Source: Anaeramoeba flamelloides (taxonomy: Eukaryota; Metamonada; Anaeramoebidae). Taken from it: a stretch of DNA of 64,000 nucleotides. The translations under genes and the position numbers were made by a program. The stretch is from positions 8,184,001 through 8,248,000 of the forward strand of contig JANTQA010000023.1 of the NCBI GenBank assembly GCA_027625915.1, in the 5' to 3' direction. The notes under the pieces were generated by a model that was not told the DNA's origin, ran no database searches, and saw nothing but the letters and a program-made list of their open reading frames with translations. Shown here piece by piece: positions 5,223 to 58,200 of the stretch. The stretch's first letter is position 1. Every line of letters begins with the position of its first letter.

Positions 5223-7589
5223 TGAAAAAAAAAAAAAAAGAGAATTATAAAAAATTTGGGTAAAAGTTGTCTTGGTAAAAAATAAAAAATGATCCAAGTT
5301 CATCAGAAAAGGGAAATTTTGGTTTTGAAATGAGGAATTAACTCAAATTAAATGATAAAAAGTCTTATGTGTTGTTGCTCCTTTTTTTTCTTGACTTTTA
5401 ATAGGTCTAATTCAATAATCTAATCAATAAATTTCAGAATTGATTTTCTCTTCAGTTTTACAAAAGTGAAATAATTTTTCAGAAGAGTAATTTATCTAAA
5501 ATTGTAGATTTTGTGATTAACTGTAAAATCTAAAACGTTCAAATTTTCATAAACCCGGTATTTCCATTTTTGATCAACTAAAAAATATAAGTAAAAATTC
5601 AGAAAATTAGAATAATTTTCTGATAAAGATATAAATTAAAGTACAACTTATAACCATTCCAATTGGGGTGTTGGTTAAATATTCTGAGCCCATCATTTTT
5701 AAACCTTTAGTATATGTATAAATCAAAAAAAAACCAAATCTTAAAATTTTATTGAAGAGATGACTGAAAATTAAAAATATAATTTTGGTTTTAAATTTTA
5801 AAATGTCTAACCATTTTTTTCAATTTATAATAAACTAAATTTAAGATTAAATAACCCAATTTTTTTTTATAACTTTTTTTTATTTTATTTTTAGACAAAA
5901 AACAAATCTACCTAATATATAGAACTGGATATTAAAATAGTAATTTTTTTATTTTAATAGATAACTTCAATTTATAAAAATATTTATTTTCAAAATTTGA
6001 TTTTGAATGGGTCAATCATTTTGAAATAGAGTTTATATTTAATAAATTTTAATTTGAGAAAGGAGTTTGATTATTTTGGATTTACATTAAATTAACAAAA
6101 ATTATTTGATAAAAAAATATATCCTTGGGGGTTTTCAATTTATAATTATATACGCAATTTAAAAAAAAATGTTTGATAAAAGTATTCAAATAAAAGAGTT
6201 CAAAAGTAAATAAAATGTTTCCTAATTATTTTTTAAACATAAAATTGTTTTTTTGTGAGATTTTGAGTAAATAATTTTGTAAAAAAATACAGATAAGAAA
6301 GAAATTAGAGCTCTTATAAAATTTAAGATTATTACACTGTAGTCAATGTGGAATGATTTAGAGAATTCCTTATATTTTTATTTAAAATTTGAAAATTTTC
6401 TGATATTCTTATTTTAACTTCAAACAAAGGAAAATAAGAATTGTTTTCCTAATAAAAATTGTTTTTAAATATGATAATAAAAGTTATTTTAGAAGAGTTT
6501 GTCAAAAAAATTATTTACAAAGTTGTTTAATTGATAACAGTGTGATTTTCAAATGTCTCAATTTCAAACCAGTTGAATAGCATATTTTGGTCCTAGGAAC
6601 CAAAAAAATTGTCCAATAAAAACTAAAAAAAAGTGCTTGATAATTTGGGAAATGTTTAGAAAAAGAATAAATTTCATTTCTTTATTTAAAAATAATGTCT
6701 ATTTCTGAAAATTGTTTTTCGTTTTTCTTCCAAAGTAAAAAAAATATCATTTCAAAAAAAAAATTAAAAAAATTTTATTTCTTTTTTTTCATTTGGAAAA
6801 AGGAGAAAAGAAACAGTTTATAAGAGGATTTCAAAATTAGAAAAAAAAGATAATTATAATGAAATAAAAATCTTAAATAAAAACATTTTTTTTTCTCTAT
6901 CAATCCAAGAAAATTTTAGAGGAATGTTCAAAATCATTCATTGTTAAAAAGACCAGGTACAGGTAAATTTTTAAGTTTGATCGTTTTTGAGAAATGGTTA
7001 ACAAACCGGGATCAAAAGAGGAAATAGAGACCTATTGTTAGGATGGACAATCTAGTTTCTCTTAGTAAAATTGAAACCAAGTTTTGTCTCAAATGTAGAA
7101 AATATAAAATTTAACTTCAATACTACAGTTAGCTACATTGCAAGAATGAGATCCTTTGAAGGATATTTTCTTCAAAGAATCATTAAAAAAAAACAAATTA
7201 GTGCTTTTGGTTGAATTTGTTTGGTTGGTTATTAGTTTCGACGAGTTAGAACCTGAATTGAAAAAATAAATAACTTTTCATATTGTTTCATTTATTCAAA
7301 AATCCCCAATTTATAATTCTTCGTTTTCGATCCCCTTCCAGACTAAATATAATAATATTTTTCTGGTAAGAAGATTATATTAATCCTCCTTCTTCAAACT
7401 CCTCAATATCATCTTATATCACTTCAAACTTTCACATTTTTTTTCTTTTTTCAAGTAAAAACTTATAATATAACAAGGAAATTGTTTCCAAATCAAAACA
7501 ATAAAGACTTTTATTTTGTTAAGGTAAAAAATAAAAGTAATTTTTATAATTCAGCCCTTTTCCTAAAATAAGCACTTTGGTTTTTTAAA
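5223..7589. other. Intergenic, no gene seen
   Basis: A+T-rich sequence with no supported gene. A patch at about 6945-7130 is less homopolymeric than its surroundings, but I could not read any protein family or RNA fold in it. Confidence 0.5.
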
Positions 7590-8530
7590 GCTATATTACA
7601 TAGTAAACTATTGTATCGATTAGAAATATTTGATTTAACAAAAATATATTTTAAAGATATCGATAGTTGGATTAATAAAAAAAGTTATAATTTTTTTATT
7701 AATCAACCCACATTCACTAAGGCTTATTTATAAATCAGGTGCAAAATTGTTCCTGTCAGAATAACAATATATAATAGAAGATTTTAGTTAATTCAAATTA
7801 ATAATCAAACTCCTTGGTTTTGATGAATTAATTAATTACCTTCATTTTAGAGAAAAAAGAATTTGAAAATATTAACTGGTAATCAAATAACTTAAAAGAA
7901 ATAGAATTTGAACTGAATAAAAATCAAATTAATCAATTAGAAAATATATCAAGTTGAAAATGTCGTTAGGTTTTTTTGAATTTAAAAGAATTGAGTAAAA
8001 TCTAAGATTTTTCGTTATTCTTTTGAATTCTGGAAAAGCTAGGCACTTGATGGGCACTTTCGTTAGGTTTCCCAGAATTCAAAAGAATTGATTAAAATCA
8101 AATATTTTACTAAATACTTTTCTTTTCGTTTGTGAATTAAAAACAACCTAACAAAAAAATATATTTAAGTTGGAAATGTTCAACTTCCATTTTAAAACTT
8201 TGAAATTTTACAAATTATTTAAACAGTTACTCTTATGTTATGAATAAAAATAAATCAAAATATTGAGATCTATGTATAAGAAAAAATAATTTAGATATCA
8301 TTGAAGTATTGTACCATTTTCTTTGGAATTGCTCGGTCAATTAAAATAATCTTAAAATCTGGATATCTGAATGAAAAAAATAATTAATATATCTAATATA
8401 TTCAAAAATAATAATTTTCTTAATAATATTATAAAAAAAGACTCATCAAGTTTTTTAGCCTTAGTGGAAATAAACTTCTTTTTGAGTCTTTAATAAGATT
8501 CCTAAATTTTTATTTAGGAATTTGGGCACA
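7590..8530 (+). mobile_element. LINE (non-LTR) reverse-transcriptase C-terminal remnant, copy L1
   Basis: Broken reading frames give pieces such as LLYRLEIFDLT and INQPTFTKAYL, and end in FLALVE. They line up in order with the remnant at 49.93-51.1 kb (same orientation), which supports a common LINE-type open frame over its last few hundred codons. Several stops show it is dead. Two palindromic units with GTTAGG boundaries (7964-8043 and 8061-8152) sit inside it. Assignment to a LINE rests on the linked copies at 32 and 57 kb, which retain a Cys/His knuckle near the C terminus. Confidence 0.5.
7964..8152. repeat. Palindrome cluster A (two units, CGTTAGG-bounded)
   Basis: Unit 1 (7964-8043) folds on AAAAGAAT/ATTCTTTT and TTGAATTCTGGAAAA-type arms. 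Unit 2 (8061-8152) opens with CGTTAGG and closes with CCTAAC, but its inner arms are degraded. Between the units is a GGCACTTGATGGGCACTTT spacer like the 10-mer spacers of the other clusters. Confidence 0.6.
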
Positions 8531-8613
8531 CAAGTGGGGCTAATAGCTCCTCCCTTAAATAATAATAAAAAAAAAAAAAACTTAACTATTTTTTTTTATA
8601 GTTTGATTATATA

Positions 8614-15177: not shown

Positions 15178-15404
15178 TGATCTTATCCATAAAAGTTAAT
15201 ATATTTTCTTCTTCTTTACTTGAATTTTTTTTTAATTCTGAATTTTAAAAAAATAATAAAATATTTCAGAAATAAATTACTTTGATATTTCTAATGAATT
15301 TTCCAATATAAATATCTATTTCAATTTTGATTTATTTGTCTAATTTAGATTTAGTTAAAAAAAATGGGAAATGTTTCCAATACCTCTTTAGAAAAATTGA
15401 TTTA

Positions 15405-15599
15405 CAGTCATTTCACTTTTAAGGTACAAACTTTCAACGAAATTTAAGGCACAATAAAAATCTCAAATTAAGGCACAAAATTTAGAATTTTTTTTTACAA
15501 TTTATTTTTCCTAGAATTTGAATTTTGTGCTTTAATTTGAGATTTTTATTGTGCCTTAAATTTCATTGAAAGTTTGTACCTTAAAAGTGAAACTGACTG
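15405..15599. mobile_element. Palindromic MITE, family M, copy 1 (195 bp)
   Basis: Starts CAGTCA after TA and ends TGACTG before TA, consistent with a TA target duplication as in Tc1/mariner. The two halves are near-perfect inverted copies carrying ACAAACTTTCAACGAAATTT and AAGGCACAATAAAAATCTC, so the whole element can fold into one hairpin. There is no coding capacity. Confidence 0.9.
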
Positions 15600-16179
15600 T
15601 ATTATATTTATTTATTTGCTTATAAAATTTTATATTTCCAATCAATTGACAAAAACCAAAATAATTAATCTTCTTGCTTTAAAATTTTCATCATCTTTTG
15701 TTTTTTTATTGAGTTTAACTCTTTGAAACTCTTTTTTAAGTTTGATTCTAATAATTCAACCCTTTTCATTTTAACGTTGAAGTGTGTAACCAATTTTTGA
15801 CTTGTTATTTTAAAGTTAATAATAACAGTATTTCAATATTTTATAACAGTAGATCTAACCATACTGTGGAAAATTCAAAGATATAAAAATCAATTTTTTA
15901 TTAAAAATTTTACACACTATGAAAAATAGTAAATAGTTAAATATAGATATCATAAACAAGATAAATTATAATAAAATTAAGAAAAAAATATTTTATCTAT
16001 TTTTTGTTTCTTTACATTAATAGACAAATTTGGATAATAATTACATCAATTGAATGTTTTTGATTTCCAAATTTATAATAAGCACAGTTTTTTACAATTT
16101 AAAGTAGTTTTGACAAAATATTTTCAAGTTTCAGTAATTTCTTCTCATTTGAACATCAGTTTTCAATTTTCTATAACCC

Positions 16180-24319: not shown

Positions 24320-25336
24320 TATTTTTGTTTTAAAAGACCAAGAAGCGAATGAAAATTTTATTTTGTTGATGGGTTTTTGTAACAAAGAAAACAAAAATAA
24401 GAACAAAAATAAAAAAATGTCAATATTATCAGATCGATACAACAAGAAGAGCTCAAGAATTGTGGTCACTTGTTCAAAATTCCATAAAACTTGTGTTTTT
24501 TTTACATTATTTCAAATTTTGAAAGAAATTAATGGATGAAAATCAAATTTCTTTTGTTTTAACATTTTTACCATTGAACTTATTCAATAAAGTTCATTTT
24601 AAAATAACTTTCAGATAGTCGATTTTCATAAAAACAGTTTCATTCTATTGAAGGCAAACAAATCTTTTCCTTTGGATAACTTTGAAACATTTCAAATAAT
24701 TAGTAAATATTTTGATTTGATAAAAGCTATTTTTTACCCCTTTTTTGAAGAACAAACGTTTATTGAGTTTTTAAAATGTTGAAAAAACACAAGAAACGTT
24801 TTCTTATATATATTCGTGAGGAACTTGAAAAACTCCTGAAAAAATTTTTCGGGATTCTATTTTCTTGATGTGCTGAAGATCGATTAGATTTCTCTTATTA
24901 TTTCAACTATTACCAAATATTTCAGAGTCTTTGTCTATAAATAATACTTTTGTGATTTTTTATCTTACAATGAATGACATTTATTGAAATTCACAATTGA
25001 AATACTAATATAAAAAATAAAATTGTTTTGTATAACAGAAAGAAGCAATAAGGGGAGGAAATACAAAAATAAAAAAAATCATTTTTTGTAAGATAAGTCT
25101 AAAAAAAGATTATAAATTATGTGATTTATGTCAATTTGTTTACCAATCATGAAAATTTTATATTCTCTGCATGGACTGAAGACCAAGGCTATAAAGAGAA
25201 AAAAAGAATTTAAAAGAATGACAGTTAACTAAAAGAGAAAATATTAGGTTTTCTTAAAAGATAACAAAAAAACATTTTTTGATCCTAAAAATTTTTATAA
25301 AATTCTCAAATGAATTCCTGATAATTTAAAAAGTTA
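24320..25336. other. Intergenic, upstream of the ankyrin gene
   Basis: No gene seen. The gene's 5' flank should lie here, but no promoter motif could be assigned. Confidence 0.5.
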
Positions 25337-25533
25337 CAATCAGTTCCACTTTTAAGTCACCAATCTTCAACAAAATTTAAGGCACAATAAAATCTCAAAA
25401 TAAGAGATAAAATTTGGAATTTTTTTTTTTACAATTTATTTTACTAGAATCTGAATTGTGAGCCTTAATTTGAGATTTTTATTGCGCCTTAAATTTCTTT
25501 GAAAAGTTTGTTACTTAAAAGTGGAACTGGCTG
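25337..25533. mobile_element. Palindromic MITE, family M, copy 2
   Basis: Same inverted halves as copy 1 but more diverged (for example TAAGTCACCAATCTTCAAC on the left). TA lies on both sides. Confidence 0.85.
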
Positions 25534-26027
25534 TAATAAAAATTGGTGATTATGGGTAGAGTTGAAAAAAATAGTGGGAGATCAGATAAAAAACAATTAT
25601 TTAGTTCATTTAATTGTTTTATGTATAAGTCGAAATGTAATTTATAATATGACTAATAATTACTAATTGTATTTTATAAGTTAAGATTTTTGAAAAAAGT
25701 TTTAATTTTTGAAGTGAATAAAACATCTTAATTTTAAAATATATTTTTTTTATTTATTAAGAAATACTATTTTTATATTTGGTTAATGATTCTAACAAGG
25801 TGTTTGAATTATGAAATTAATCTTGATGAAATAAACTATAATTAAAAATACGAAAAAATGAAATCCCCCAGTTACAATTCTTTTGAATAAAAAAAGTATA
25901 ATAGTAATTTATTTTATCTTCCTGTGAAGAATATTTCTGAAATTTCTAATAATAATTCAATTTTATGATTATTTCATCAAATATTTGTTCTGAAATATGA
26001 ACTATTATTTTTTAATGTCTTAATTTA

Positions 26028-26227
26028 CAGTCAGTTCCACTTTTAAGTCACAAAAATTTCAACAAAATTTAAGGCACAATAAAAATCTCAAATTAAGGTT
26101 CAAATTTTGTAATTTTTTTTTTTTTAAAATTTATTTTACTAGAATCTCAATTTTGTACCTTTAATTTGAAGTTTTTTTGTGCCTTAAATTTCGTTGAAAG
26201 TTTGTGCCTTAAAAGTGGAACTGACTG
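26028..26227. mobile_element. Palindromic MITE, family M, copy 3
   Basis: A 200 bp copy bounded by TA. The left half contains CAACAAAATTTAAGGCACAA, and the right half mirrors it and ends GGAACTGACTG. Confidence 0.88.
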
Positions 26228-27755
26228 TATTAAATGATAATATTAAATTACAATTAGTAATTTTTTTGTAACAGAAAGGGCATGAACTAGAAAATCAAAA
26301 ATCTGGTACTTTGAAAAAATTTGAAATTGGTTAAAAATTACAATTATTATTTTTATTTCAGTAAAATTAGTAAAAAATTTACTTCAAAAAAATTAATTAA
26401 TTTTTTCAATTTATAAAGTTTCTAATAAATCAATTTATTCTACTTTTTACCTTTAAATATTAAAAAATCAAATTATTTGTATTGTTTTTTGGTTTTAAAA
26501 TACCCTAAAAAATATAAAAATTACAAATTGTTTGAATTTTACTCACTTCCAAATTAACTATATATAACAAATGTAATATAATTATGCTTAGAGAGTGTGA
26601 CAAAAAAATTTTCAACAATATCTAAAAAATCAGAGACAAACTCCATTTTAATTATATTAATACTTTATGAATGAAATATTTGTAATAATTTCTTTAAAAA
26701 AAATTATTCACTTATTTTCATTTTTATAACAAATTTAAGATGTTTTTAGTTTTGTGAAAAAAATATTAGAACAATTAACAATTTTAGTTTGTTTTTTATT
26801 AGATCTTTTAATTTTAATTACAAAAGGGAGTCAGAAGTACCTACAACAAAAATCTTTTAAGGATTGATTTCTATTAGTCGTTGGTTGCAGTTAATTTAAC
26901 TCCAATAGTTTGATCGTAAAAATACTTTATTTTTTATATGACATTCAGAAGATATTTTTTAAAAAATTGTTTCTGTTTCCAACTTTTGGAAGGTTTTGTA
27001 TTAGATTTGTTGAGTTTTAATTGTATTCCATTAAGGCAATATTTTTCTGTTATGATTTTTATCAAGCCTGGTGTTATTTCAATGATTTTAAAAATTTTAG
27101 TGTTTTTTTTTTTCAGATATTACGAATTTATAAGTGTTGAGGCATACATATCAACTGGTAGATATTTATTATAAAAATCAAAGTTTTGTGTTTTAAATTG
27201 GAATTTTTATTTTGTTTTGTTTTGTTTGAGTTGTTTTAAAACAAATTTTTACCTCGTTTTTTCAGTAATTGAGAAAAAGAGAAATTTAAAAAACAGTCGA
27301 ATACCCAAAAAAAAAAAAATTTATTATTAAATATTTTTGATCTTATTTGTTAGAAACTCTTCCTTTCAGATTTTGGATTTAAGTAAATAAAAGAATAATT
27401 GACAAAAATCGCCTTTTAGTAACAACTTTTATATTCAATACAAAGTTAAAGATTGATCTTTGAGAATCAAAATACAATACCACCCACACATTATACAAAA
27501 TCATGGTTATTAATTCTTTTGGTATTGTAAACCTTAAATCAAAAAAAAATTTTGATTTTTTCTGATCTTCCTTCTTGGTTTGTAAGAATTTTTGTCAATC
27601 CAGTAATATTTGTGAGTGGAATAGATTTTTCTTCAGCAGTAAGTTTCTGTAATTAGTTGTACTTTTTTATAACACTTCAGCCTTATTTCCAAATGATTTT
27701 ATTCACAAACAAAACATTTTTTTTTATTTTAATTTCTTGCTTTGGTAATTTTACA
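26228..27755. other. Intergenic / eS24 5' flank
   Basis: No independent gene is supported; the frame at 26938-27174 is not protein-like. The last ~150 bases contain GTAAGT near 27640 and several CAG acceptors, so a 5' UTR intron of eS24 is possible but unproven. Confidence 0.45.
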
Positions 27756-29880: not shown

Positions 29881-30777
29881 TCAAGGTATTTTTTCCCCTA
29901 TTATATAAAAAATATTATCAAAAATGAAAACTCACATTTGATACTCTCATAAGTTTGGCATTTCTAATGTTTAATTTTGTTCTGAATCAAATTTTATTAT
30001 GAATCTTTATTTTAAAGCGTTGAATCAAAGAGTAAAAAGTTAATATTCGATAAAAATTTGAAAAATATGTTTATAGGAAATTTTATTGTTTTATAACTTC
30101 AGATAAAAAATTTGGGATTAGAATTTGCTTTAAAAATTGAAAATATTAGAATAAAAAAAATGGTTTTATATCTAGATTAATTCTTGACTTGTGTTTGATT
30201 GTTTCTCTCCAGCTGGCTACCTCCATTTTTTTTTTTCTTAGAGTTAAACATTGCTCAGTGGTTTTTTTAATTTCATCAATTCAATCATTTTATATTTAAT
30301 CTTTGAAATATTATTCTTTATTTCGGTTTGGTTAAATAAATAATTGAAAAAAGAACTTTAAAAACTAATTTGTAAAATAATATTATGTATAAATCATAAT
30401 AAATAATAATGGGAAGAGAAATACAATACAAGTAAAGGATTTATTACTCTCTTTTAATTTAAGAAGATAAAGAAGAATATATTTAGAAAATATATATTTT
30501 TTTCATTTTTGATTTCAATAAGTTTATTTGGAAAGTGATCTTTGATTTTTGGTCTTCTAAAGAAAAATTTTTTTTTAAAAATACACATATCCTTTATTTT
30601 TTTTTTTATATTTTGGTTTATATTTTGATTAATTTCAACAATCCACTCTTAACCATTCTCAATTCAAATGTAAATTTAGACAATACTCAACAAATAATAA
30701 AAAAAACGTTTCTAAAAAAATTAAATTTTAAGATTCAACTCTTGGTTTATTTGATTTGTTTTTTTTTTCAACAAATA
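29881..30777. other. Intergenic, no gene seen
   Basis: A+T-rich. The frame at 30535-30789 is compositionally driven and overlaps the MITE. Confidence 0.5.
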
Positions 30778-30971
30778 GAGTCAGTTTGACTTTTAAGGCA
30801 CAAACTTTCAACGAAATTTAAGGCATAAAAAAATCTCGAATTAAAGCACAAAATTCAAATACTAGAAAAATAATTGGTAAAAAAAAAATCCCATTTTTGT
30901 GCCTTAATTTGAGATTTTTTTTGTACCTTAAATTTCGTTGAAAGTTTGTGCCTTAAAAGTGAAACTGACTG
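30778..30971. mobile_element. Palindromic MITE, family M, copy 4
   Basis: Begins GAGTCAG after TA and ends GAAACTGACTG. The inner arms (ACAAACTTTCAACGAAATTT) are well preserved, so it is probably among the younger copies despite edge changes. Confidence 0.88.
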
Positions 30972-31639
30972 TCTAGCAAAGGTATGATATTTTGATTTCA
31001 TTGTTTCAATATCGAGTTGTACTCAAAAAATTAATTAATTAATGTTTCGATAAATGTCATCAGAATGAACAGTTTTAAAAATTTCGAAAATGTGTCTTAC
31101 ACCTTACCATAAATTGATTCTTTATATAATAAATAATGTATTATCTTATATATTCAGGATTGCCCTAATTCCTATTTAAATATCAACCAACACGTCGTTT
31201 TTGATTGGGATCTTAAAAAAATAACAGTGAAAATCAATTATTTTTTTTATAAAAAAATAGTTGAAAAAAATTACTAGATTTCTATAAAAACAGATTTTAC
31301 TTTCAGTTTAGTCTTAATCCCCCTCGTTAAAAAGTTTCACTCTATAATACTTTATGATACCTCTTATAAGATTTTCATCTTCAGTACTTTAAATTTTTGA
31401 AATTAGTTTTTGTGAGAAAAAAAATCAAACAAAATAATGACTTTATCCTACTTAAACTTTATAAAACAATCACAAGTTATATATATATATATATATATAT
31501 ATCAAATTAAATTGATTGTGTACTGAAATAGAAAAATTGTTTTAGATTGAAGTAATTTAACAGTATAGGAAATAAAAAAAAAATGATAATATTTTTTTTT
31601 TTAAATTTTAATTATTTGAAATTAAAATAGATTGCTTTG
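30972..31639. other. Intergenic with (TA)n
   Basis: No gene. The TA run is at 31479-31502. Confidence 0.5.
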
Positions 31640-32039: not shown

Positions 32040-32965
32040 AAGATTATTATTTTTAAATTAAAAAATTTATCCCTCCCATATTTAGAAAAATTAATAAAAT
32101 ATAATCAACAAACAAACAATAAAATCAATTGGAATTTAAAAGATTTAATTGAATTGAAAGAAGAAATTTACAAATATACATATATTGAATTATTGAATTA
32201 CAAGAGTGAGAAAGTCATTAGGTTTTCCAGAATTTAAAAGAATTGAGCAAAATATTTGATTTTTCTCTATTCTTTTAAATTCTGGAAAACCATCGTTAGC
32301 TTTTCTTGAGTTTTCTGTTTATTTGAAAAATCGATAGATTTTCGTTAGGTTTTTTTTTGATTTTCGAAATAAACCGAAAATTTATTAAAATTTTCGGTTT
32401 ATTTCAAAAAGTAAAAAAAAAACCTTGGAACACTTAACAGAATAAACAGAAAACTTCAAGAAAACCTCGGCACTCTAAGCACTTGAAGACACTTCACAGT
32501 ACTTGACGGCACTTGACGACACTTTACAAAAATATTTCAAAATAATAAAATATCGAAACTCTTTATTTAAAACTCAAAAATATTTAAGTTATCTTTCAAG
32601 CTCAACAATCCTGAAATTCAGAACATTTATTAACCTCTTAAATAGATATTACGATATAATAAATAAAAACTCAAATAAATATTGTTCTTTATGTTTAAAA
32701 TATGAACATAAGGAAATAATAGAAAATATTAATCATTTTTTATGGGTATGTCCTTATTATGAAAAAAAAATAGATTAATTTTTCTTAACAAATTAAAAGA
32801 AATAAATCTTAATGAAAGGTTTTTAAACTGTGATAGTTTGAAATTATTTTCATTAATTAATAATCGTGAAATCTATGATTTCGCGCTTTAATTTCTGAAA
32901 GGGTGTTTGTGTCTAAGGGCAACTAAAGTATAATTTACACTTCTTCAAAAATAAAAAAAGATATT
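32040..32965 (+). mobile_element. LINE 3' end, copy L2
   Basis: Coding remnants at 32040-32210 (IIIFKLKNLSLPYLEKLI, INWNLKDLIELKEEIY) and 32503-32890 (TLQKYFKIIKYRNSLFKTQK, then CSLC and NHFLWVC). The Cys/His cluster C-x2-C-x13-H-x4-C resembles the knuckle that follows the reverse-transcriptase domain in many LINE proteins. The two parts are separated by palindrome cluster B (32216-32467). After the frame comes a 3' UTR-like tail ending in AATTTACACTTCTTCAAAAA. The minus-strand copy at 57.8-56.9 kb matches part by part. Only this 5'-truncated tail is present. Confidence 0.7.
32216..32467. repeat. Palindrome cluster B, one hairpin nested in another
   Basis: Unit a (32216-32294) folds on TTTTCCAGAATTTAAAAGAA. 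Unit b has arms TTTTCTTGAGTTTTCTGTTT (32298-) and its partner at 32441-32467. Unit c (32343-32428), with AAATAAACCGAAAATTT arms and a CGTTAGG start, sits inside b. GGCACTTGACGAC-type 10-mers follow at 32478-32523. Confidence 0.7.
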
Positions 32966-33510: not shown

Positions 33511-33578
33511 AAATGAAATTTATTTGATAAAGAAAATTTGAAATATCTTTGTGTAATTTGTATTTTGGCTTTGTAATA

Positions 33579-33773
33579 CAGTCAGTTTCACTTTTAAGGA
33601 ACAAACTTTCAACGAAATTTAAGGCACAAAAAAATCTCAAATTAAGGCACAAAATTTGAAATTTTTTTTTTACAATTTATTTTACTAGAATATGTATTTT
33701 GTGTTTTAATTTGAGATTTTTATAGTGTCTTAAATTTCGTTGAAAGTTTGTGCCTTAAAAGTGAAACTGACTG
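33579..33773. mobile_element. Palindromic MITE, family M, copy 5 (195 bp)
   Basis: TA-flanked, CAGTCAG to CTGACTG, with full-length inverted halves. The open frame spilling out of it (33740-33928) has no family resemblance. Confidence 0.9.
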
Positions 33774-34285
33774 TACTTTTAGATCTTTCATTTGCGTATT
33801 TGAATCTTTTTCATTTCGATCCTGTGATTTTTCTCCCAAAGATGGATTTTTTCATTAAAATAGTTTGGATAAATGAGATGATTTCCTGTTGGTTTGATTT
33901 AAAAATAAACAGTTTACTTTCTCAGTAACTTTTTGAGAGAGTAAGTAACCCCTATAGTATAAAGATATTTGACAAATCTGACTTTGCCCTTAACACAGAA
34001 AAAAAATTTTTGTTTCTGAAGATTCTGCCTTGAAATACATTAAAATTAAAATTGAGAAACTCTTATTTTACCCACCACTAAAGTTCTGTGTAAATTATTT
34101 TTGATGAAATAAAATCAAATAACTCACTATTAATCTTTGAAATTTTGTTAAAGAACCTTTTTTTCAACAATAAGTTTTAAAATGTTTGACTGGTTTCGTT
34201 AGAGAATCTACAATGAGAATATTCAAGTGTCACAACTCTAAAAATAAAAAGAAGGAAAAATTTCGGTTTGTCATTTTTTACAAAT
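33774..34285. other. Upstream region of the membrane-protein gene
   Basis: Nothing assignable. It presumably holds the promoter of the plus-strand gene starting at 34286. Confidence 0.4.
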
Positions 34286-44302: not shown

Positions 44303-44383
44303 TGCTAATGACAGGACTCGAACCTGCGCGGATACTTCCACTGGGACTTAAATCCAGCGCCTTAACCACTCGGCCACATTAGC
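44303..44383 (-). tRNA. tRNA-Leu(UAA)
   Basis: A class II tRNA of 81 nt on the minus strand. The acceptor arms GCTAATG and CATTAGC pair over 7 bp. The D-arm region reads GTGGCCGAGTGGTTAAGGC (A box). The anticodon loop TTTAAGT gives UAA. The variable arm pairs GGA with TCC. The B box GGTTCGAGTCC follows. No intron; the 3' CCA is not encoded. One A-C mismatch sits next to the anticodon loop. Confidence 0.95.
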
Positions 44384-44624: not shown

Positions 44625-47600
44625 ATGTTAACGCTGCTGAACAAAACATTCAAAAAACAAATTGTAAACAAAACCTATTTTCTGTGTCTTGTGAAAACAT
44701 CAAATCGATCCCAAGCACGATCCTTTCACAACAAACAAATAAATAGTCAATTTAAAAACAGAGCATCTCTGAAACGATTTTACACACAAACACCCGAAAT
44801 TCAAGATCTTTTAAACAAAAAAGATCGTTATTCAATAATTGAGAGTGATCAAACTGTAACTTTAAATTTTTTTCCATCTTTTTTTCCTTTTTTGTCTTTT
44901 CTTTTGGAATAACTTTCGCATCATGAATGAAATTTTTTCTTTTTTCTCTTCACAAAAACGAAACTCTTTGAACGCACCAAACAAACAAAAAAACAAACTA
45001 TATCACAAACACAAAACAAAAAACACAAAACAAAAAAACAAACAAAAAAACTAAACTCTTCGAAGGCAAAAAACAAACTTAACCACAAAAAATAACAAAA
45101 AACAAACTATCTCACAAACACAAAACAAAAAACACAAAAAAACAAACCTAATCAAAAATTAACCTACCTTAATGTACCCTACCAACAAAAAACACAAGTT
45201 AAAAGAGCACTCAGCCCAAGAACAATTAGCTTTCCCTATGCGGGTACCGCTTGTGCCACTTTTAAATCGGCCGCTGTTTCCCGGTGTGACAATTCAGACG
45301 ATTTTACCACCGTTTCGGCGCACAAAGGAGAACCCAAACCAAACGGTTGCCTTTTTCTTTGTTAAGGACTACCAATTGCAACCGGAAACTCGCCGTGGTG
45401 ATGAGGGCTTTGCAAGGGAGCACAAGCATAAAAAAACATTACGCCAAAAGTTTAGTGATTTTTTCATTTCCAAAACAAGCAAAGGTAGCGCATTAGAGAA
45501 CTTGCCAAGCATTGGAACCTTAGCAGTTATTAGCCCAAGTGATGTATCGCAATCTCCACATTCGTTTGTGAGTTGCACGGGGCTTGAGAGGGTGAGAGCC
45601 CGAAAGATTATTCCAAGCAACAATCATTTTCTCATTGACATTGACCACGTAGCTGCTGACAGTAGCACGATCAATGATGACAGCAACTCTTCTGGCGAAT
45701 TTGTTCTTGATCCTGAACAAGTGCTCATATACAAAAAGATCATTTTTGATTTACTAAAAGAGCTCATCGCCCTCAAGCCATATTTTGCTGAGGGCACACG
45801 GTACTTGTTGCAACACATCAAAAAATTTTCGTTATCTTCGCTCTTAGATTTATCGTGCTCAATAACCACGTCTCGGGGAACCGAACTCCAGCGCGTCTTG
45901 GGCACCATTCCAACAGGCAAGAGGTTTAATCTTGTGAAGGAATTGCTTGATTACGAGATCAGATTCAGCAAGGCTCGGCAACACGTCATGAAAACGGTAT
46001 CCCAGCGCTTGCTGATCGAGCAAAAAAAGATCTACCTTGAGAAGCAGATGAAGGAAATCAAATCCGAGCTGGGCATCCAGGGCAAGGGCAACTGGGACAT
46101 CATCCAAAAGTTTCGAAAGCAAATGGAGGGGAAACAATATCCCAAGCATGCCTCGGATGTAATCGAAGAGCAATTTGAAAAGCTAACGCAATTGAACGTT
46201 TCCTCTTTAGAATTCAACACGACAAGAAACTATTTAGATTGGTTGGTCAAGCTGCCATGGATGACATATCAAACGGAAAACTTGGATATCTTGCTAGCGA
46301 AAAAGATTTTGGACGAGGATCATTATAGCCTAACCGATGTCAAAAAAAGAATCTTGGAATTCATTGCCGTCGGAAACCTGAAGGGATCCTTGCACGGTAA
46401 GATCTTGTGTCTGGTTGGCCCACCGGGGGTTGGTAAAACCTCGATTGGGAAAAGCCTATCGCGAGCTCTGAGCAGAGAATTTTTCAGATACTCCCTGGGC
46501 GGGCTGTCAGATTCTTCGGCACTAAAGGGGTTTAAGCGAACCTATATTGGCGCGTTACCTGGCTTGTTTATTCAGGGAATGAAAAACTTGAAAACTTCTA
46601 ATCCTGTATTTGTTCTTGATGAAGTCGACAAATTGGGCGTATCGTATAAAGGTGACCCATCGTCCGCCCTTTTAGAGGCCTTGGATCCAGAGCAAAATTC
46701 TGAATTTTTGGACCATTTCTTAGATGTTTCTTACGACCTTTCAAAAGTCCTATTTGTAATGACAGCTAATGTAACAAGCACAATACCTAGTCCTCTGCTA
46801 GACAGAATGGAAGTTATCAGAATTTCCGGTTATGTTGAAGAAGAAAAATTGCAAATTGCTAAAAAATATTTAATTAAAAAGGTCCAAAAGGAAACGGGAA
46901 TAAAGGAAAATCAAGTTCAAATTACAGAAAACGCAATTCGAACTTTGATACGTGATTATTGCAGAGAGGCAGGAGTTAGGAATTTACAAAAAAATCTGGA
47001 AAAAATTCATCGAAAAATTGCTTATAAAATTGCTATTTCAAAAAACAATTCGACTGATTCAACAACAAAAACAGCAACAGCAACAACAGCATCATCATCA
47101 TCATCATCATCATCGCCTTCTCGTCAGAAAGAAGTAGAAGAACAACAAAAAAAACAAGAAAAGCAAAATTTAATTAATTTCCCAATAATAGTAGAGGAAA
47201 AAGATTTACAAGAATATTTAGGTAAAGCAATCTTTTTAGGTGATCGAATCTATAAAAAAACAGGAGTGGGTGTAGTCACTGGATTAGCGTGGTCGCATTT
47301 TGGTGGGGCCCTATCTTATATTGAATCGATCAAAACAGAATTTGATGAATTTGATGAAGAACCATCACGAGATAAGAAAAAAGTTTTAAAAAAGGGATCA
47401 CACAAAATTACTGGGCAATTAGGAGAAGTGATGAAAGAAAGTTCGCTAATTGCTTATACCTTTGCGAAAAAATTCTTACGGGAACAACTACCAAATAATA
47501 CCTTTTTAGACGAAAACAAGATACATACACATTGCCCAGAAGGCGCAATACCTAAAGATGGGCCAAGTGCTGGTGTGACAATAGTAACCAGTTTAATCTC

Positions 47601-47847
47601 TTTAGCCTTGCAAAAACCAGTTAAAGAAGACTTTGCAATGACAGGTGAAATCACGTTAAGCGGTAAAGTTTTGCCAATAGGCGGACTTAAAGAAAAGGTT
47701 TTAGCAGCTAGAAGATCAGGTATTAATCAACTAATCTTCCCCAAAGAAAATGAACGCGATTGGTTTGAATTAGAAGACTATATTACAAAGGGAATAACAC
47801 CCCATTTTGTTCAAAAATACGCTGATATTTATAAAATTCTTTTTTAA
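44625..47847 (+). CDS. LON: Lon-family ATP-dependent protease, probably organellar (two exons)
   Basis: An AAA+ serine protease that degrades damaged matrix proteins. Exon 2 carries the Lon N domain (FPMRVPLVPLLNRPLFPG), Walker A GPPGVGKT (46417), Walker B VFVLDEVDK, and the protease domain with the catalytic Ser in PKDGPSAG (codon at 47566) and Lys in GGLKEK (second Lys, 47695). A Ser/Thr/Gln-rich insert (Ser run at ~47090) separates the AAA+ and protease parts. I propose exon 1 at 44625-44855, giving MLTLLNKTFKKQIVNKTYFL and then an Arg/Lys-rich, acid-poor stretch (NRSQARSFHNKQ, SLKRFYTQ) that looks like a mitochondrial-type targeting presequence. The GTAACT...AAG intron (44856-45198) is phase 0 on both sides; the total would be 959 aa. 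If exon 1 is not used, Met at 45172 starts an 891-residue, leaderless form. The first ~1.5 kb of exon 2 is much more G+C-rich than the rest. Confidence 0.88.
44856..45198 (+). other. Lon intron or 5' UTR, A/C-rich with direct repeats
   Basis: The sense strand is built of ACAAACACAAAAC-type words. A ~45 bp block starting AACAAACTATATCACAAACA at about 44993 recurs at about 45102, and CTCTTTGAACGCACC near 44962 has a degenerate partner CTCTTCGAAGGC near 45056. This suggests a ~100 bp tandem duplication. Confidence 0.55.
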
Positions 47848-48690: not shown

Positions 48691-49204
48691 TTTCTTTCTT
48701 ATTATTCTTTATTTTTCTTTTTTAAAGGTAATATTTCTTTCTTTTTTACATATCAAGAATATTAATAAACTCTTTTACAGTACAAAGGAACTATTTTATT
48801 GAAAAAAACAACAAGTACCATTATTTTAATTTATTATTATATCAAAAAATAATTTTCAATTTTTGGACTATTTTTTCTAATTTAGTCAATTGTTTATTTG
48901 GTTGATTTTTACTTTTTTTTTATTTTTATTTTTTTCTTTGTTCTTCATGTTATTTTTTCTGTTTTTTTTTTATGAAAAAGTTAATTTCAAAAATAAAAAA
49001 AATGTTTGAAAACACCAAATCAAGATCAAGAAAATTGAATCTTTGGATTTTCTTCTAAAATGAATATTTGAACTTATAAAAATCTATTGGTCAATAATAC
49101 CAAGTTTCTAATGAAATTGAGAAATTTTACACTAAATGTTCCAATGAAAATGGCCTAAAATTTTTTCAACATTTTGAAATATAAGGTTCTTTAAGATATT
49201 TCTA
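48691..49204. other. Intergenic, no gene seen
   Basis: A+T-rich, nothing supported. Confidence 0.5.
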
Positions 49205-49398
49205 CAGTCAGTTCCACTTTTAAGGCTCAAACTTTCAACGAAATTTAAGGCGCAGAAAAATCTCAAATTAAAGAACAAAATTTGAAATTTTTTTTTACAA
49301 TCTGTTTTACTAGAATCTGAATTTTATGACTTAATTTGAGATTTTTTTTTGTGCCTTAAATTTTGGAGCAATTTATGTCTTAAAAGTGGGACTTATTG
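49205..49398. mobile_element. Palindromic MITE, family M, copy 6
   Basis: Begins CAGTCAGTTCCACTTTTAAG after TA. The right end is eroded (GGGACTTATTG). The most decayed edge of the seven copies. Confidence 0.85.
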
Positions 49399-49929
49399 TA
49401 TTATGAATATCAATTCTAATCCAAAGTTTATTATTTCTATAATTTCTAAACAATTGCAGTTGGTTGATTCTTTTGAAAAATTAATTTTTTATTTTTGGCT
49501 GGCCACCTTTAAGTGAAATGGATTTATGTGTAATCCTACCTTTTTAACAGTAGATCTACAGTTTGTATATTTTTTCACTTAAATAAAAAACTATATCTAG
49601 CACAATTTCCATTTTTCAGATTATTTTTAGGTCTTTTTAAGTTTACCTTTTAATTTTTTCGATATCAACTTTGTTTTTTTGATTTCTTTTTTTTTATAAA
49701 TATGAAATTTCTTTTAATAGAAGATCCATACAATCACCTAAACCGATCATAAATATCAATTATATATGATATTTTATTTTTGAAGGATCGTCATTAAAAA
49801 AAGAAAGTTGAAAATTACAGGATCAAATGGAAAATTTATCTAAAAAAATTATAGATTTTGGATAAATTTTTTAAATCAATCAAAAAACATAAATTTAATA
49901 AAAAAAAAATAAAAAATTGAGTTAATTGC
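49399..49929. other. Intergenic, no gene seen
   Basis: A+T-rich, nothing supported. Confidence 0.5.
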
Positions 49930-50600
49930 TATATTGATTCGAAATATTTGATCTGAAAAAAACAATATTTCAATTCAAAGGGTGTGTGGATTAATAAAAA
50001 AAGTAAAAAAATTTTTATTAATAAATTCATACTCTCCAAGACTTATATATAAAACTGAAGCAAAAAATAGACTCATGAAGATTAACGATATAAAAGAAGA
50101 TTTAAACTAATTCAAAAATTTTATATTTTTAGATTTTCATGAAATAGTTAAAAATATTAAACTCAGAGAACAGAAATTAGAATATATTAATTGACAATCA
50201 AATACCTTAAAAGAATTAGAAATTGATCTTGATAAATATCGAATTAAACAATTAGAAAATAGTTTCAGATCAAAATTTTCAAAATATTTAAAAATAATTT
50301 CTATTCAAAATAATATATCAAAAATAAAGATATTTAAAATGGAAAGGCTCAACTTCAATTTTAAAACTCAGAAATTTTAAAATTATTTAAATAGATATAT
50401 ACGCATGTTATGAATGAGAATAAATCAAAATTGTGTGAATTATACAAAAAATCAAAAAAATTAGATATCACTCAAAATTTGGATCATTTTCTCTGGAAAT
50501 CTCAAGCTTGAGAAAATAATCGTAAAATCTAGATATCTGAATTAAAAAAATAATATTTCTAGTATATTATAAAAAAATATCATTACTATTTTCGATATTA

Positions 50601-50797
50601 CAGTCAGTTTCACTTTTAAGGCACAAACTTTCAACGAAATTTAAGGCACAAAAAAAATCTCAAATTAAAGCACAAAATTCAGCTTCTAGTAAAATAAATT
50701 GTAAAAATTAAAATTCCAAATTTTGTGCTTTAATTTGAGATTTTTTTTGTGCCTTAAATTTCGTTGAAAGTTTGTGCCTTAAAAGTGAAACTGACTG
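50601..50797. mobile_element. Palindromic MITE, family M, copy 7 (197 bp)
   Basis: TA-flanked, with nearly identical inverted halves. It is inserted in the L3 LINE remnant. Confidence 0.9.
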
Positions 50798-50904
50798 TAT
50801 TACAAAAAAAATATCCATCATATTTATTAGCCTTAGTGGGTAATAAATTTATTTTTGAGTCTTTAAAAAAATTTCTATATCACAATTTAGGAATTCGACG
50901 AAGT

Positions 50905-51075
50905 GTAATAGAGTGCCGTAGAGTGCATAGGTTTTCTTGAGGTTTTCTGTTTTATTTGTTAAATCTATCGATTTTACAAAGAAACATAAAACTCAAGAAA
51001 ACCTAACGGCTCTTTTCCAAAATCAAAAATAATATAGAAAAAACTAAGATTTTACTTAATTCTGGAAAACCTAAC
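50905..51075. repeat. Palindrome cluster C
   Basis: GAGTGCCGTAGAGTGC spacer at about 50911. Unit b (50927-51008) folds on TTTTCTTGAGGTTTTCTG with CTCAAGAAAACCTAACG. Unit a (51010-51073) is partly degraded and also ends in CCTAACG. Confidence 0.65.
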
Positions 51076-51561
51076 GTTTTATAAGAGAAATTAAAAACTC
51101 GTCAGTTAAATAATAATTAAAATAAACATAATAATAAAAATTTATTAAAAAAATCGAACATTTTCATACCTAATTTAAAATTTGATTAAAATATTAAGGT
51201 TTTTACTTTCAAATTTAATATGAATTTAGATATAATGTTGGGTTGTGAATTAGAGATTTCATTATACCTAGAAGAAAAAACATGAATTTTATTTTGAAAA
51301 AACATTTAGAATACTTTCGCTATTATTTATTCCATACCGTTTAATTATTTTTTTAAAATTGAACAATTGTTTTTCTATTGAATCTACAATTTACATGAAC
51401 AATTTCTAATAATGAGAGTTTTTTAATTAAACTATATTTAATAGAAACTTTTTCAAATCTTCTCTCCTCCCTTAAATAAAAAAATCAAAAGTCAAGAAAT
51501 CACTTTATTTTCCTCAATCATTTTTCAACAGAGACTTTTATTTTTGTAGCTCCTGAAAAGA
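51076..51561. other. Upstream region of the LC8 gene
   Basis: No gene. A TTTTTGTAG just before the start codon could be the acceptor of a 5' UTR intron. Confidence 0.4.
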
Positions 51562-53279: not shown

Positions 53280-53670
53280 AATAAAATAAATTCAATATCT
53301 TAACTATCCCTAGTGGATAATAAAAATATACTTTGAATCTTTAAAAAAATTCTAAATTCATATTTAAGGATTTGGTGAGGTGCCGTAGAGTGCCGTTGAG
53401 TGCCTAGGTTTTTTCTAATTTCAGAAATAAAAAGAAAATTAAATAAATTTTCTTTTAATTTCTAAAATTAAAAAAAACCTAACGACTGTTTTCTTGTGGT
53501 TTTCTATTTTATTTGTTAAATCTATCGATTTTACATAGAAACAGAAAACTCAAGAAAAGCTAACGACGTTTTTCCAAAATTCAAAAGAATATAGAAAAAT
53601 CTAAGATTTTACTCAATTCTTTTAAATTGTGAAAAAGCCACCGGCATTTTATTTCAAAAAGTAAAAAAAC
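53280..53670 (+). mobile_element. LINE 3' fragment, copy L4, with palindrome cluster D
   Basis: The short left part matches the 3' tail of L1/L3 (CCCTAGTGGATAATAAAAAT, then ATTTAAGGATTTGG). It is followed directly by three GTGCCGTAGA-type 10-mers (53379-53404) and palindrome units c (53404-53484), b (53488-53565) and a (53567-53640). Confidence 0.55.
53404..53640. repeat. Palindrome cluster D, three units in a row
   Basis: The clearest array: CCTAGG-started unit c with AATAAAAAGAAAATT/AATTTTCTTTTAATTT arms, unit b with a CTATCGATTTTA centre, and unit a with AAAAGAAT/ATTCTTTT arms. CTAACGAC words separate the units. Confidence 0.75.
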
Positions 53671-54394
53671 TTAACCGAAAATAAGATGAATTAAAACTTC
53701 TCACTTAAATGACAATATAAAAAAAGAATAAAAAAAAATTTGCTGAATAGATATTAATTTCCTTGAGAAACTTGGGTTAAACTTTTATCAAATTTTATAT
53801 TTATTTAATCGCCTATATATCAATTAATTTTATTGGCTGAGATTTGAATTGAAACATAAAATTATAAAAAATACATAAGAAAATTAAAAATTTTCTTTTC
53901 AAAATCTAGAATTTTACAAGCATAAAACTAAAAATATGACACAGCATTTCCAAGAATTAACAAAAATATAAATAAAAATAAAAGATTATTTTTTTTTTTT
54001 CGTTTTATATTCGAAAAATGAGAATTTGTAAATTCAGAAAAACAACAAAAATTAATAAATTATTTAAACTAAAGTTATCTCATCTATTTCATAAGCCAAA
54101 ACACAAATTTCAATAAAAAAAAAAAAAAAATAGGATCCCACAAGATTTCTTTTTATTTTTAAATAATACTGGTTTCTTAGTATTTTGAATTTGATCTAAA
54201 TAAAAAAAGAATTTTCTTTTTGTTTAAAGAATCATTTTAAGGCAAAAAGACTTTTTCTATAACAAATTTTATATTTTTTCTAAAAAAGTAGCTCACATGT
54301 TAATAAATTTTTTATTGAGAATTCAAAATAGCAAAATAATGAAAAATATATAAATGAAAAACAGTGTTTGTTTGATTAATTTTAACATCTACTT
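53671..54394. other. Intergenic, no gene seen
   Basis: A+T-rich, nothing supported. Confidence 0.5.
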
Positions 54395-55285: not shown

Positions 55286-58200
55286 TTAATATTTGGATTT
55301 AAATCGAATTACAGGTGAAATACGAGATTTATTTGCGATTACTTGAAAAAAATAAATACTAAAGGGATCTTTAAAATCGATAAATTCTCTAATCCATAAT
55401 AACACATGAGAATATGTTTTGCCAAAATCTAAAAACGAATGTCTGAAGACGTCTGGTAAATAAATTTGCTTCTCGATGACATTTGTTCGTACATAAGACT
55501 TTAAAAATTCTTTTGTAATTGAAGATAATTCTTGTGATAAACTTTTTGAATGTATTGGTGCCAATATTGGACTTTCGGTTTTAAATGTAAACAAAGCAAA
55601 ATGAATTCTTGGATCACCAGTATCAAGCTGAAGCATTTTTAAGTGTTCTTTAAATTTATATTTAGCATGATTTTTATCATTTAGATAATAGGAGAGTTTG
55701 AAAATGCCATACTTGATATCTGCTAAGGAAAATAATTTGCCACCTATATTATATTTGGTTTCTATTAAAAAGTCTTCTAGTGAATTTTCATCGGTTGGTA
55801 TCGGGTTTAAAATCAAAGAATGGATGCTCATTGTATTGAAAATATTTATGAAAAAAGCTTTTTGATGGAAAGTGTCCTTATAAGCAAAATCGTCCAGGTT
55901 TATGGATTGTAATTTCGTCGTCTCTATTTCAAATTTTTGAAAAATTTTTGAATTTCGTAATTCTTCAAGAATTATTTTATTGTATTTCTGTGAATAATAG
56001 ATTCTAATGATGTCCAATAATATTTCCAATAAATATTCGCTAAAAACGCACGTATCTGTTATTTTCTCTTCAGATAAGATCTCGATATTCAAAGTTTTAA
56101 AAAGTCTGTGTTTGTGAATAATTACCCCCTCAAAAGTTTTATTTGACTTTGACTCCGTGTTTGAAATATGGTCACTTTCTAATAATTCAGCCATATAACC
56201 GCTTTTTTGAAAATTTTCATATAATTCTTTGCTTAATAATGTTTCTGTTTCTTTTGCAATTTCATCAAAAATTGTTGAGATCTTGCTTTCATTTTCAATT
56301 TGTTTCATGATTTTTTCATATTTTTCCGATTCAAGATTAATTGAAAAAATGCTATCTGGTTTTAAATACGTTGAAATTAAATAATTTATTAACGATTCAG
56401 AATTCTGAATTTTCAGAGAATTATTTATTTATCAGAGAATAATTTATTTACCAGAGTAATTAAGAAGAATGAAAAAAAGAAAAAGTTGAAGAATAATAAC
56501 ATGGAAAAAGAAAAAAAAAGTTAGATCATTAACTATATTGAAATAAATAATTGCAATTAAAAAAAATTATTTTTTTGGATTAAAAATAAGAATAAATTTT
56601 TTTCTTGATCTGATATGTTTTTTTTTTAATTATATCAAAGTGATTTTGTTGAAACATCAAATTGTTTTGATAGCAGAATTATCAATGTTTTTAATTTTGT
56701 TTTATAATTGATTTTCATTTTAAATTATAATTGATTTTAATTTTGATTTTATAATTGATTTTCATTTTACATTTTGGAATATATTTTTTGTAATGTAAAT
56801 GATTATCTTAATTTTTAAAACACTTATTTAATAATAATTCTAAGAAAAATAAAAAAATTGTGATTTTTATTTTTTATTATTGAAGAAGTGTAAATTACAC
56901 TCTAGTTGCCCTTTGACTTAAATTCCCTTTCAGAAATTTAAATGTAAAATTATAGATTCCACCTTTATTAATTAATGAAAATAGTTTCAAATTATCACAG
57001 TTTAAAATTATTTCATTAAGATTTATTTTTTGTAATTTGTTTTTGAAATATTGATCTCTCTTTTTTCATAGGAAAGGACGTACCCATAAAAAATGATCAA
57101 TATTTTCTATTATTTTCTTCTGTTTATATTTTAAACATAAAGGACAAAAGTTATCTGAATTGTTATTAATTAAATAGTAATATCTATTTAAGCAATTAGT
57201 AAATGACCTGAATTTTAGAATTGGTTGAGCTTGAAGGATAACTTAAATATTTTTGAGTTTTGATAAAAAGTTTTGATTTCCAATCATTGTGAAATATTTT
57301 TGTGGAGTGTCGTCAAGTGCCGTAGAGTTCTTAGACTGATTATAATTTTTGAAATAAAAAGAATATTTATGAAATTTTCTTTTTATTTCTAAAATTAAAA
57401 AAAAACTAACGAAAAGTGTCGTAGAGTGCCGTAGAGTGCCTAGGTTTTTCAAAATTCAAAAGAATAGAGTAAAATTAAAGATTTAACTCGATTCTTTTGA
57501 ATTCTGGAAAATGTAACGGCGGTTTTTTTAATTTTTGGAATGTAAAGAAAATTAAATAAATTTTCTTTACATTTCAAAAAGTAAAAAAAGCCTAACGACA
57601 TTCCCAACTTGTCGAATTCAGTTACTAATTATATGTTTATTTCTTATATATTTCAATTTTTAGTTCAATTAAATCTTTTGAATTCCAATTGATTTTGTTA
57701 TTCATTCGTTTGTTGAGTTATATTAATTTTTCAAATAAAGAAAGAGATAAATTTTTTGAATTAATTTTTGAATTTGAATTTTTTTTTATTTACTGAAATT
57801 ACCAATTTATATTTTTATTATTTTTCCTTTTACTTTTTTGGAGTTTCCTTTTTTTTTTCTTTCTAAAAAATAAAATTTATTTTTTTTTTGATTTTCATTA
57901 AAAAGTAGAGCAGAAGGAAAATAATCAACCATGGTGTTCTCTTTTGGTTGGCAAGGTATTGAAGATGAGAAATGGTGGTGGAAATTTAACTTCTTCTTCT
58001 ATATAATTGCCTTGTAATGGTGTTAACTTCTTGTTAGTGCAGTAATGATGGGTTTTTTTGTGATCATCTACTGTCAAGTATGGAATTACGCAAACCAGAT
58101 GAAAATGATGGTGGTGATTTAGAAATTCATGGCATAATGGACATAAAAGGAAGCAAACAATGGCACATTAAACACTTGGGTTACAACTTGATTTTTTAAA

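What the first reader, a model, noticed from the sequence alone, without database searches (positions are those of the whole stretch)
53379..53640. Modular palindrome arrays with fixed CGTTAGG/CCTAACG boundaries and 10-bp GTGCCGTAGA spacers
Five clusters (7964-8152, 32216-32467, 50905-51075, 53379-53640, 57301-57598) are built from three interchangeable hairpin types: (a) CCAGAATTCAAAAGAAT arms, (b) TTGAGTTTTCTG arms around CTATCGATTTTA, and (c) AAATAAACCGAAAATTT or AAAGAAAATTAAAT arms. The types occur in different orders and in one case nested (c within b at 32.3 kb). They share outer heptamers and are separated by repeated 10-mers. Every cluster lies in or directly beside a LINE remnant, and at 32 and 57 kb at the same point of the element. 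This may be a self-propagating family of hairpins, a LINE-borne structural RNA, or an insertion hot spot with its own target rule. I know no named family with this architecture.
Basis: partly seen in the sequence, partly recalled or inferred. Interest (0 to 1): 0.72.

Follow-up and report, generated by a model that had tools for sequence, protein, structure and literature searches.

The report
Shuffling palindrome arrays inside transposable elements
Short runs of three or four kinds of DNA palindrome sit at a few fixed points inside LINE-type and other transposable elements of an AT-rich eukaryote genome, and the run differs between copies, so it looks like a passenger module that is reshuffled as its carriers spread.

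Summary
The arrays are real and recur genome-wide: exact diagnostic words occur 1,460, 1,369 and 666 times, against 0 for the reversed control words. One end is a run of 10-mers (AGTGCCGTAG). Then come one to several near-perfect palindromes of about 70 nt, joined by a CTAACGGC-like spacer. The other end is CCTAACG. In the window three arrays lie between the RT-side region and the zinc finger of a LINE and two in its 3' UTR; elsewhere some lie in a ~730-bp repeat. Eight recurrent host sites were assigned to 90 of 107 sampled arrays. Empty sites exist at two LINE-A sites and in the ~730-bp repeat, so the array is an insert, not an obligate LINE part. At the 3' UTR site occupancy largely tracks LINE lineage, so most copies look inherited with the carrier. 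Unit number and order differ between copies of one carrier, and similar arrays occur at different sites. Best reading: a transposon-borne, hypervariable mosaic of palindromes, reshuffled unit by unit and swapped between carriers, probably by reverse-transcriptase template switching. The shuffling mechanism is inferred, not shown.

The parts
7964..8152 (-). Array 1: two a-type units with a two-10-mer head between them; in the LINE between the RT-side region and the zinc finger (site S3, by eye)
   Evidence: site read by eye
7580..8570 (+). LINE-A copy carrying array 1; its own 3' UTR site (about 8520-8530) is empty (by eye)
32216..32524 (-). Array 2: a, then b with c nested in its loop, then 10-mer head 32468-32524; site S3 of a LINE (family E)
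50905..51076 (+). Array 3: head, b, partial a, CCTAACG; in the 3' UTR of a LINE-A copy (site S1)
53379..53675 (+). Array 4 (the finding): 10-mer head 53379-53408, c 53405-53481, b about 53489-53559, a about 53569-53637, right arm of a further c about 53647-53672; site S1
57306..57597 (+). Array 5: head, c, second head, a, c; site S3 of a LINE on the minus strand, same junctions as array 2 but other units
49930..50594 (+). LINE-A copy with sites S3 and S4 empty (reference empty site, 50260-50345)
50807..50904 (+). LINE-A C-terminal end directly before array 3
56814..57305 (-). LINE family E: zinc finger to 3' end, downstream (LINE sense) of array 5

Best explanation
The arrays are a non-coding passenger module of transposable elements: a 10-mer head, one to several palindromic units (a, b, c, d) joined by CTAACGGC-like spacers, and a CCTAACG end. 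SHOWN: it is a discrete insert at a few fixed points (S1 3' UTR, S3/S4 between RT side and zinc finger, S5 in the zinc finger of LINEs; S2 in a ~730-bp repeat; others), with empty sites, and about 0-1 bp of target duplication where filled and empty letters could be compared (S1, S4). SHOWN at S1: occupancy goes with carrier lineage, while unit number and order differ between copies; similar multi-unit arrays lie at different sites. INFERRED: unit gain and loss and exchange between carriers happen mostly when the carrier RNA is reverse-transcribed, the LINE enzyme slipping or switching templates at the hairpins and repeated spacers. It predicts the chimeras seen, in which an array joins parts of two carriers or stands where a LINE segment is missing.
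For: Empty S1: L101 reads through ..GGAATTCGG|GCAAATAAGAGG.. while L099, L100, L105 and L107 carry an array at that point. Exact empty junctions 190, occupied 100, controls 0. Empty S4: 40 of 40 best-scored matches run across it (of 1,349 candidates); empty S1: 40 of 40 at 96-100% (of 1,941); both samples are biased towards empty copies because the query was an empty copy. Inherited at S1: only 2 of 190 empty copies have the base C typical of the occupied ones read, and 8 of 100 occupied have T. Hypervariable: S1 arrays read in full or part are a; c; c-a; a-c; a-d; b-a; b[c]-a-c; c-b-a-c and others. At S2, five copies whose left flanks are 94-96% like the query have inserts of 88, 89, 176, 176 and 265 bp, about one, two and three units. 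Mixing: an array's best partner lies at the same site for 28 of 88, 18.6 expected, 34 of 1000 shuffles as high. Chimeras: L028 1904-2422 has an S2 left flank and an S4 right flank; L093 matches RT and RT-side pieces but not zinc finger or C-terminus, and its right flank reads, by eye, like a LINE 3' tail.
Against: No RNA data, so template switching is untested; DNA recombination between arrays would leave the same chimeras and unit losses. Same-site partners are slightly enriched, so transfer between sites is not free. S3 arrays lie antisense to their LINE, which plain RNA template switching between sense arrays does not explain. At S2 the carrier has inverted-repeat-like ends and no known LINE part, so it may not be retrotransposed at all; and the right halves of its filled copies are only 82-86% like the query, no closer than the empty copies, so lineage tracking is not shown there. 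Only two chimeras were noted.
Confidence: 0.45

Rival explanations
1. Same passenger module, but reshuffled at the DNA level: unequal exchange, gene conversion and replication slippage between thousands of palindromic units, with no role for reverse transcriptase.
For: Palindromes with repeated spacers are prone to deletion and exchange (general knowledge); L011 shows a b unit fused to a c arm at a shared TTTATTT stretch (read). Chimeric flanks (L028, L093) fit ectopic exchange. Arrays at different loci share long stretches, e.g. 92.7% over 288 bp for L024 and L098.
Against: Does not by itself explain arrival at several separate host sites with loss-free junctions (S1).
Confidence: 0.27
2. A true non-autonomous mobile element: hairpin cassettes inserted independently, without target duplication, at preferred sites, by an enzyme not yet seen; nested copies in the b loop are self-insertions.
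For: Empty sites; single-unit inserts of 84 and 87 bp (L099, L100) and 88-89 bp; opposite orientations at the neighbouring sites S3 and S4; c or b nested in b. Of the 40 S4-empty copies, 3 are S1-occupied and 21 S1-empty by coordinate match with the printed rows; 16 are undetermined from those capped lists, one of them the window's own 50-kb copy, which is occupied by array 3.
Against: Occupancy at S1 follows carrier lineage; few arrays (17 of 107) got no site label; the sites share at most a weak RMAAA-like right flank (by eye); no gene for it was found or looked for.
Confidence: 0.2
3. A functional structured RNA of the LINE 3' end, kept by selection for recognition by its reverse transcriptase.
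For: Strong folding on both strands; position S1 directly before a shared 3' tail; c arms co-vary (0 of 2000 shuffles).
Against: Many near-identical LINE copies lack it at S1 (40 best matches to an empty copy, 96-100% identical); it also sits antisense inside the LINE and in another repeat; a arms do not co-vary (294 of 2000).
Confidence: 0.05

Closest known systems
GC clusters of yeast mitochondrial DNA (and other organelle palindromic repeats)
   Same: Short mobile palindromes that merge and shuffle, as described in PMC4478555 (passages read).
   Different: Organelle DNA, GC-rich, AG target dinucleotide; here AT-rich palindromes in multi-megabase contigs with a 10-mer head, fixed transposon host sites and no AG rule seen.
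BIMEs / REPINs of bacteria
   Same: Mosaics of palindromes with short tags and linkers (PMC2817692 and PMC3733652, abstract starts in the listing; PMC3116915 abstract).
   Different: Bacterial, extragenic, 20-40 bp units, tied to RAYT transposases; here eukaryotic, ~70-nt units, inside other transposons, no enzyme found.
Composite retroelements with variable tandem cores (SVA) and LINE template-jump chimeras
   Same: Unit number varies between copies; chimeras by template jumps are proposed for a fungal LINE (PMC2104539, title and abstract start only). SVA features are recalled.
   Different: Here the variable part is a set of different palindromes with a common spacer, present in several carrier families.
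Foldback elements / MITEs (recalled)
   Same: High copy number, palindromic, nested.
   Different: No clear target duplication seen, no common terminal inverted repeat for the whole array.

Membership tests
Fixed 3' UTR of a LINE | Same array in all copies of the element | tested here: not met
   Different units in the LINE-A copies read; empty copies abundant
MITE / DNA transposon | Target-site duplication around the insert | tested here: inconclusive
   Filled and empty letters compared only at S1 and S4: 0-1 bp; not tested statistically
MITE / DNA transposon | Terminal inverted repeats of the whole insert | tested here: not met
   One end 10-mers + TAGG, other end CCTAACG, by reading
REP/BIME-like mobile palindromes | Mosaic of palindrome types with conserved tag at the foot | tested here: met
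   Types a-d with CTAACG foot in 107 parsed arrays
REP/BIME-like mobile palindromes | Associated single-strand (HUH/Y1) transposase | not tested
SINE | Pol III promoter and own 3' tail | not tested
   No call
Known structured RNA | Match to an Rfam family | tested here: not met
   At gathering scores only a tRNA at 44303-44383 in the whole window

The most novel reading that the evidence does not exclude
A eukaryotic counterpart of bacterial mosaic palindromes: hairpin cassettes with their own unseen enzyme that insert without target duplication at a few transposon sites and into their own loops, building arrays unit by unit.
Probability: 0.18. Interest if true: 0.75.

Novelty: new variant of a known kind. 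Interest (0 to 1): 0.5.

Why it matters
If the arrays change almost every time a carrier is copied, they are a built-in recorder of reverse-transcriptase slippage and template switching in a genome with hundreds of LINE copies. They would also show how non-coding modules pass between unrelated transposons. The empty and filled copies of the same LINE junction make the question directly testable with related strains.

Tried and rejected
Local duplication: rejected, units are genome-wide. Fixed LINE part: rejected. I first read the data as arrays flanking a LINE fragment as inverted repeats of one transposon; dropped when LINEs with RT-side matches on the far side of the array were seen (L078, L085). 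I then favoured independent insertions; (occupancy follows carrier lineage) went against that and moved it to a rival. Reading all S1 arrays as subsets of one master order was dropped because nearly any short order fits it. Helitron-like, CACTA-like and integron-attC-like ends were considered from memory; none was tested beyond reading the ends, and no such filing is made. Strand preference of folding: 69 of 105 arrays fold better on the strand with the head at the 3' end (2 of 107 left out as too long or with N); too weak to use. One exact word each was absent from viral contigs and from the bacterial and archaeal genome set. Literature: the listings of searches (at most the first 8-20 rows each) showed no paper that I recognised as being on such arrays; one search failed on a sign. 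A suspected amoeboid metamonad host (Anaeramoeba) is my recall from protein style; no call shows it.

Limits: 98 of the loci are the first-listed hits on contig C1, not a random sample. Site labels are fuzzy flank matches: 86 of 107 by script, 90 after I set 7 by hand, of which 88 entered the shuffle test (two S3 arrays had no partner); some labels are doubtful (e.g. L087, called S3 by script, whose flank reads more like S1). Tokens for hairpins include some false ones in A/T-rich flanks. Overlapping loci were merged (133 clusters to 107). An earlier merging by shared 40-mers (90 to 57) was too strict and was not used further.

Full report
What is there. The window is part of a 254-Mb, 76-contig, AT-rich genome (G+C 18.5-35.9% per 2-kb step). 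The five clusters were read directly. Each consists of near-perfect palindromes. The majority consensus palindromes are about 67-78 nt: a (CCAGAATTCAAAAGAAT arms), b (CTTGAGGTTTTCTGTTTTATTTG arms, ATCTATCGATTTT loop) and c (AATTTTAGAAATAAACCGAAAATTT arms). A rarer type d (AATTTTTGTTTTGATTAGAAAATC arms) is seen in e.g. L022 and L098. Typical units begin G(G/C)TTTT and end AAAA(G/C)C and are followed by TAACGGC or a relative of it (by reading). One end of an array bears one to six 10-mers (AGTGCCGTAG and variants) that run into TAGG; the other ends CCTAACG.

Not chance and not local. Exact words for the head, for a and for b with its foot occur 1,460, 1,369 and 666 times, and the reversed words 0 times. 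In 98 loci from contig C1, nine small fetched stretches and the window I parsed 133 clusters, 107 after merging overlaps.

Where they sit. Flank signatures label 90 of 107 with eight recurrent sites (86 by script, 7 labels set by hand): S1 33, S2 20, S6 9, S3 9, S5 6, S8 5, S4 5, S7 3. S1 is the 3' UTR of LINE family A/A2, just after the ORF end and before a shared tail (GCAAATAAGAGG..CTCC..AATAATAAA). S3, S4 and S5 lie between the RT-side region and the zinc finger, or in the finger, of the same kind of LINE; an RT domain is present in L037 (RVT_1, E 1e-18), whose array follows its C-terminus. S2 is a ~730-bp repeat with inverted-repeat-like ends that matches none of the LINE pieces tried. 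In the window, arrays at 50.9 and 53.4 kb are at S1 and those at 8.0, 32.2 and 57.3 kb at S3; the 53.4-kb label was set by hand and the 8-kb one is my reading by eye.

Insert, not part. The LINE-A copy at 49.93-50.58 kb has no array where the 8-kb copy has one; that alignment is only about 75% identical and the empty copy has some 40 extra bases there. L108, a copy from another contig, gives an empty S4 (TTAACAAACA|ACAAAGATATTT); filled copies L068 and L085 show similar edges around the array. L101 gives an empty S1 (GGAATTCGG|GCAAATAAGAGG); L099, L100, L105 and L107 are filled at that point. Filled plus empty letters agree with a 0-1 bp duplication; at S1 nothing is lost. Best-scored matches to the empty S4 and S1 references were contiguous in 40 of 40 each, a biased sample of 1,349 and 1,941 candidates. 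Exact junction words give 190 empty and 100 occupied S1 sites. For S2 a joined-flank query found 29 of 45 rows contiguous (empty, 78-89% identity), while filled copies gave half matches.

Inherited, yet changing. Against independent insertion: among exact S1 junctions, 2 of 190 empty copies have AATCAC before the junction, and 8 of 100 occupied ones have AATCAT. The remaining copies may differ in other bases of those seven, so these are lower bounds for each class. At S2 the filled copies found are 94-96% like the query's left flank, the empty ones at most 89%; but that left flank came from a filled copy, and the right halves of the filled copies are only 82-86%, so lineage tracking at S2 is not established. 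At S1, then, carriers mostly bring their array along. Within one carrier the array still differs: L099 has a, L100 c, L103 c-a, L106 a-c, L107 a-d, L105 b[c]-a-c, 50.9 kb b-a, 53.4 kb c-b-a and part of c. At S2, five half-match pairs are separated by 88, 89, 176, 176 and 265 bp. The 32- and 57-kb arrays share both junctions but not units. Of the 40 S4-empty copies, 21 are S1-empty and 3 S1-occupied by coordinates; 16 cannot be told from the capped lists, one of which is the window's own copy with array 3.

Mixing between carriers. Multi-unit arrays at different sites are often close relatives, e.g. S5 L090 and S1 L098 (90.8% over 249 bp). The best partner is at the same site for 28 of 88 against 18.6 in label shuffles (34 of 1000 as high), so site explains little, though more than nothing. 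The arrangement head-b[c]-a-c appears at S1 (L105), S2 (L040), S6 (L095, L003) and S7 (L092), and the shorter b[c]-a at S3 (32 kb) and S4 (L076). Adjacent pairs favour b-a (44) and a-c (43) over a-b (19) and c-a (27); c-b (20) and b-c (19) are even. Nesting is mainly of c or b in the b loop, in both directions.

Chimeras. L028 joins an S2 left half through an array to the LINE-A zinc finger. L093 joins the RT side through an array to what reads by eye like a LINE 3' tail, with no match to the finger or C-terminus pieces. These are what switching or exchange inside arrays would give.

Structure. All five clusters fold far better than shuffled sequence (z -5.1 to -16.0; -82.3 kcal/mol, z -7.65 for array 4). 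Arms of a within one unit match no better than arms of other units (294 of 2000 shuffles reach it), b weakly (124 of 2000), c clearly (0 of 2000), which can reflect c subtypes. No selection on RNA structure is shown.

Reading. I conclude that this is a transposon-borne, hypervariable mosaic of palindromes. Inheritance with carriers (S1) and differences between copies are shown; reverse-transcriptase template switching is the inferred cause, with DNA-level exchange a close rival and a dedicated hairpin transposon a third. It works like yeast mitochondrial GC clusters, for which merger and shuffling are reported (PMC4478555, passages), and like bacterial BIMEs (listing), but is a member of neither on the evidence here.

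Noticed in passing
window 15403-15605, 25335-25535, 26026-26232, 30774-30980, 33570-33775, 49203-49404, 50595-50806: A ~205-bp palindromic repeat with seven copies in the window (73-94% identical); six of the seven were also listed as matching themselves on the opposite strand; the copy at 50.6 kb splits the LINE-A end before array 3.
   Followed up: no
L037 about 1297 (same place as L084 about 1050): The LINE zinc-finger site holds a run of the 10-mers with no hairpin at all, next to LINE letters that themselves read GTGCCTAT; the head may have arisen from LINE sequence by tandem growth.
   Followed up: partly
L026, L029, L058, L096 (S2 carrier): The ~730-bp carrier has ends like CACTAGCATGAAAAAAT and ATTTTTTCATGATCGTGTTGT (inverted-repeat-like); its end ATCGTGTTGT resembles the start of arrays at S4 and S5 (ATCGTGTCGTC).
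   Followed up: partly
L068 1560-1640: At the array's left edge a short inverted copy of the LINE target letters (TTAACAA..TTGTTGTTAA) suggests a fold-back event on insertion.
   Followed up: no
genome, e.g. C70:2124480, C61:4134931, C1:4232945: A young LINE-A burst: the 40 best matches to an array-free 3' end are 96-100% identical.
   Followed up: partly
window 45163-47847: Single-ORF, complete-looking Lon protease gene at clearly higher G+C (0.34-0.36) than its surroundings.
   Followed up: no
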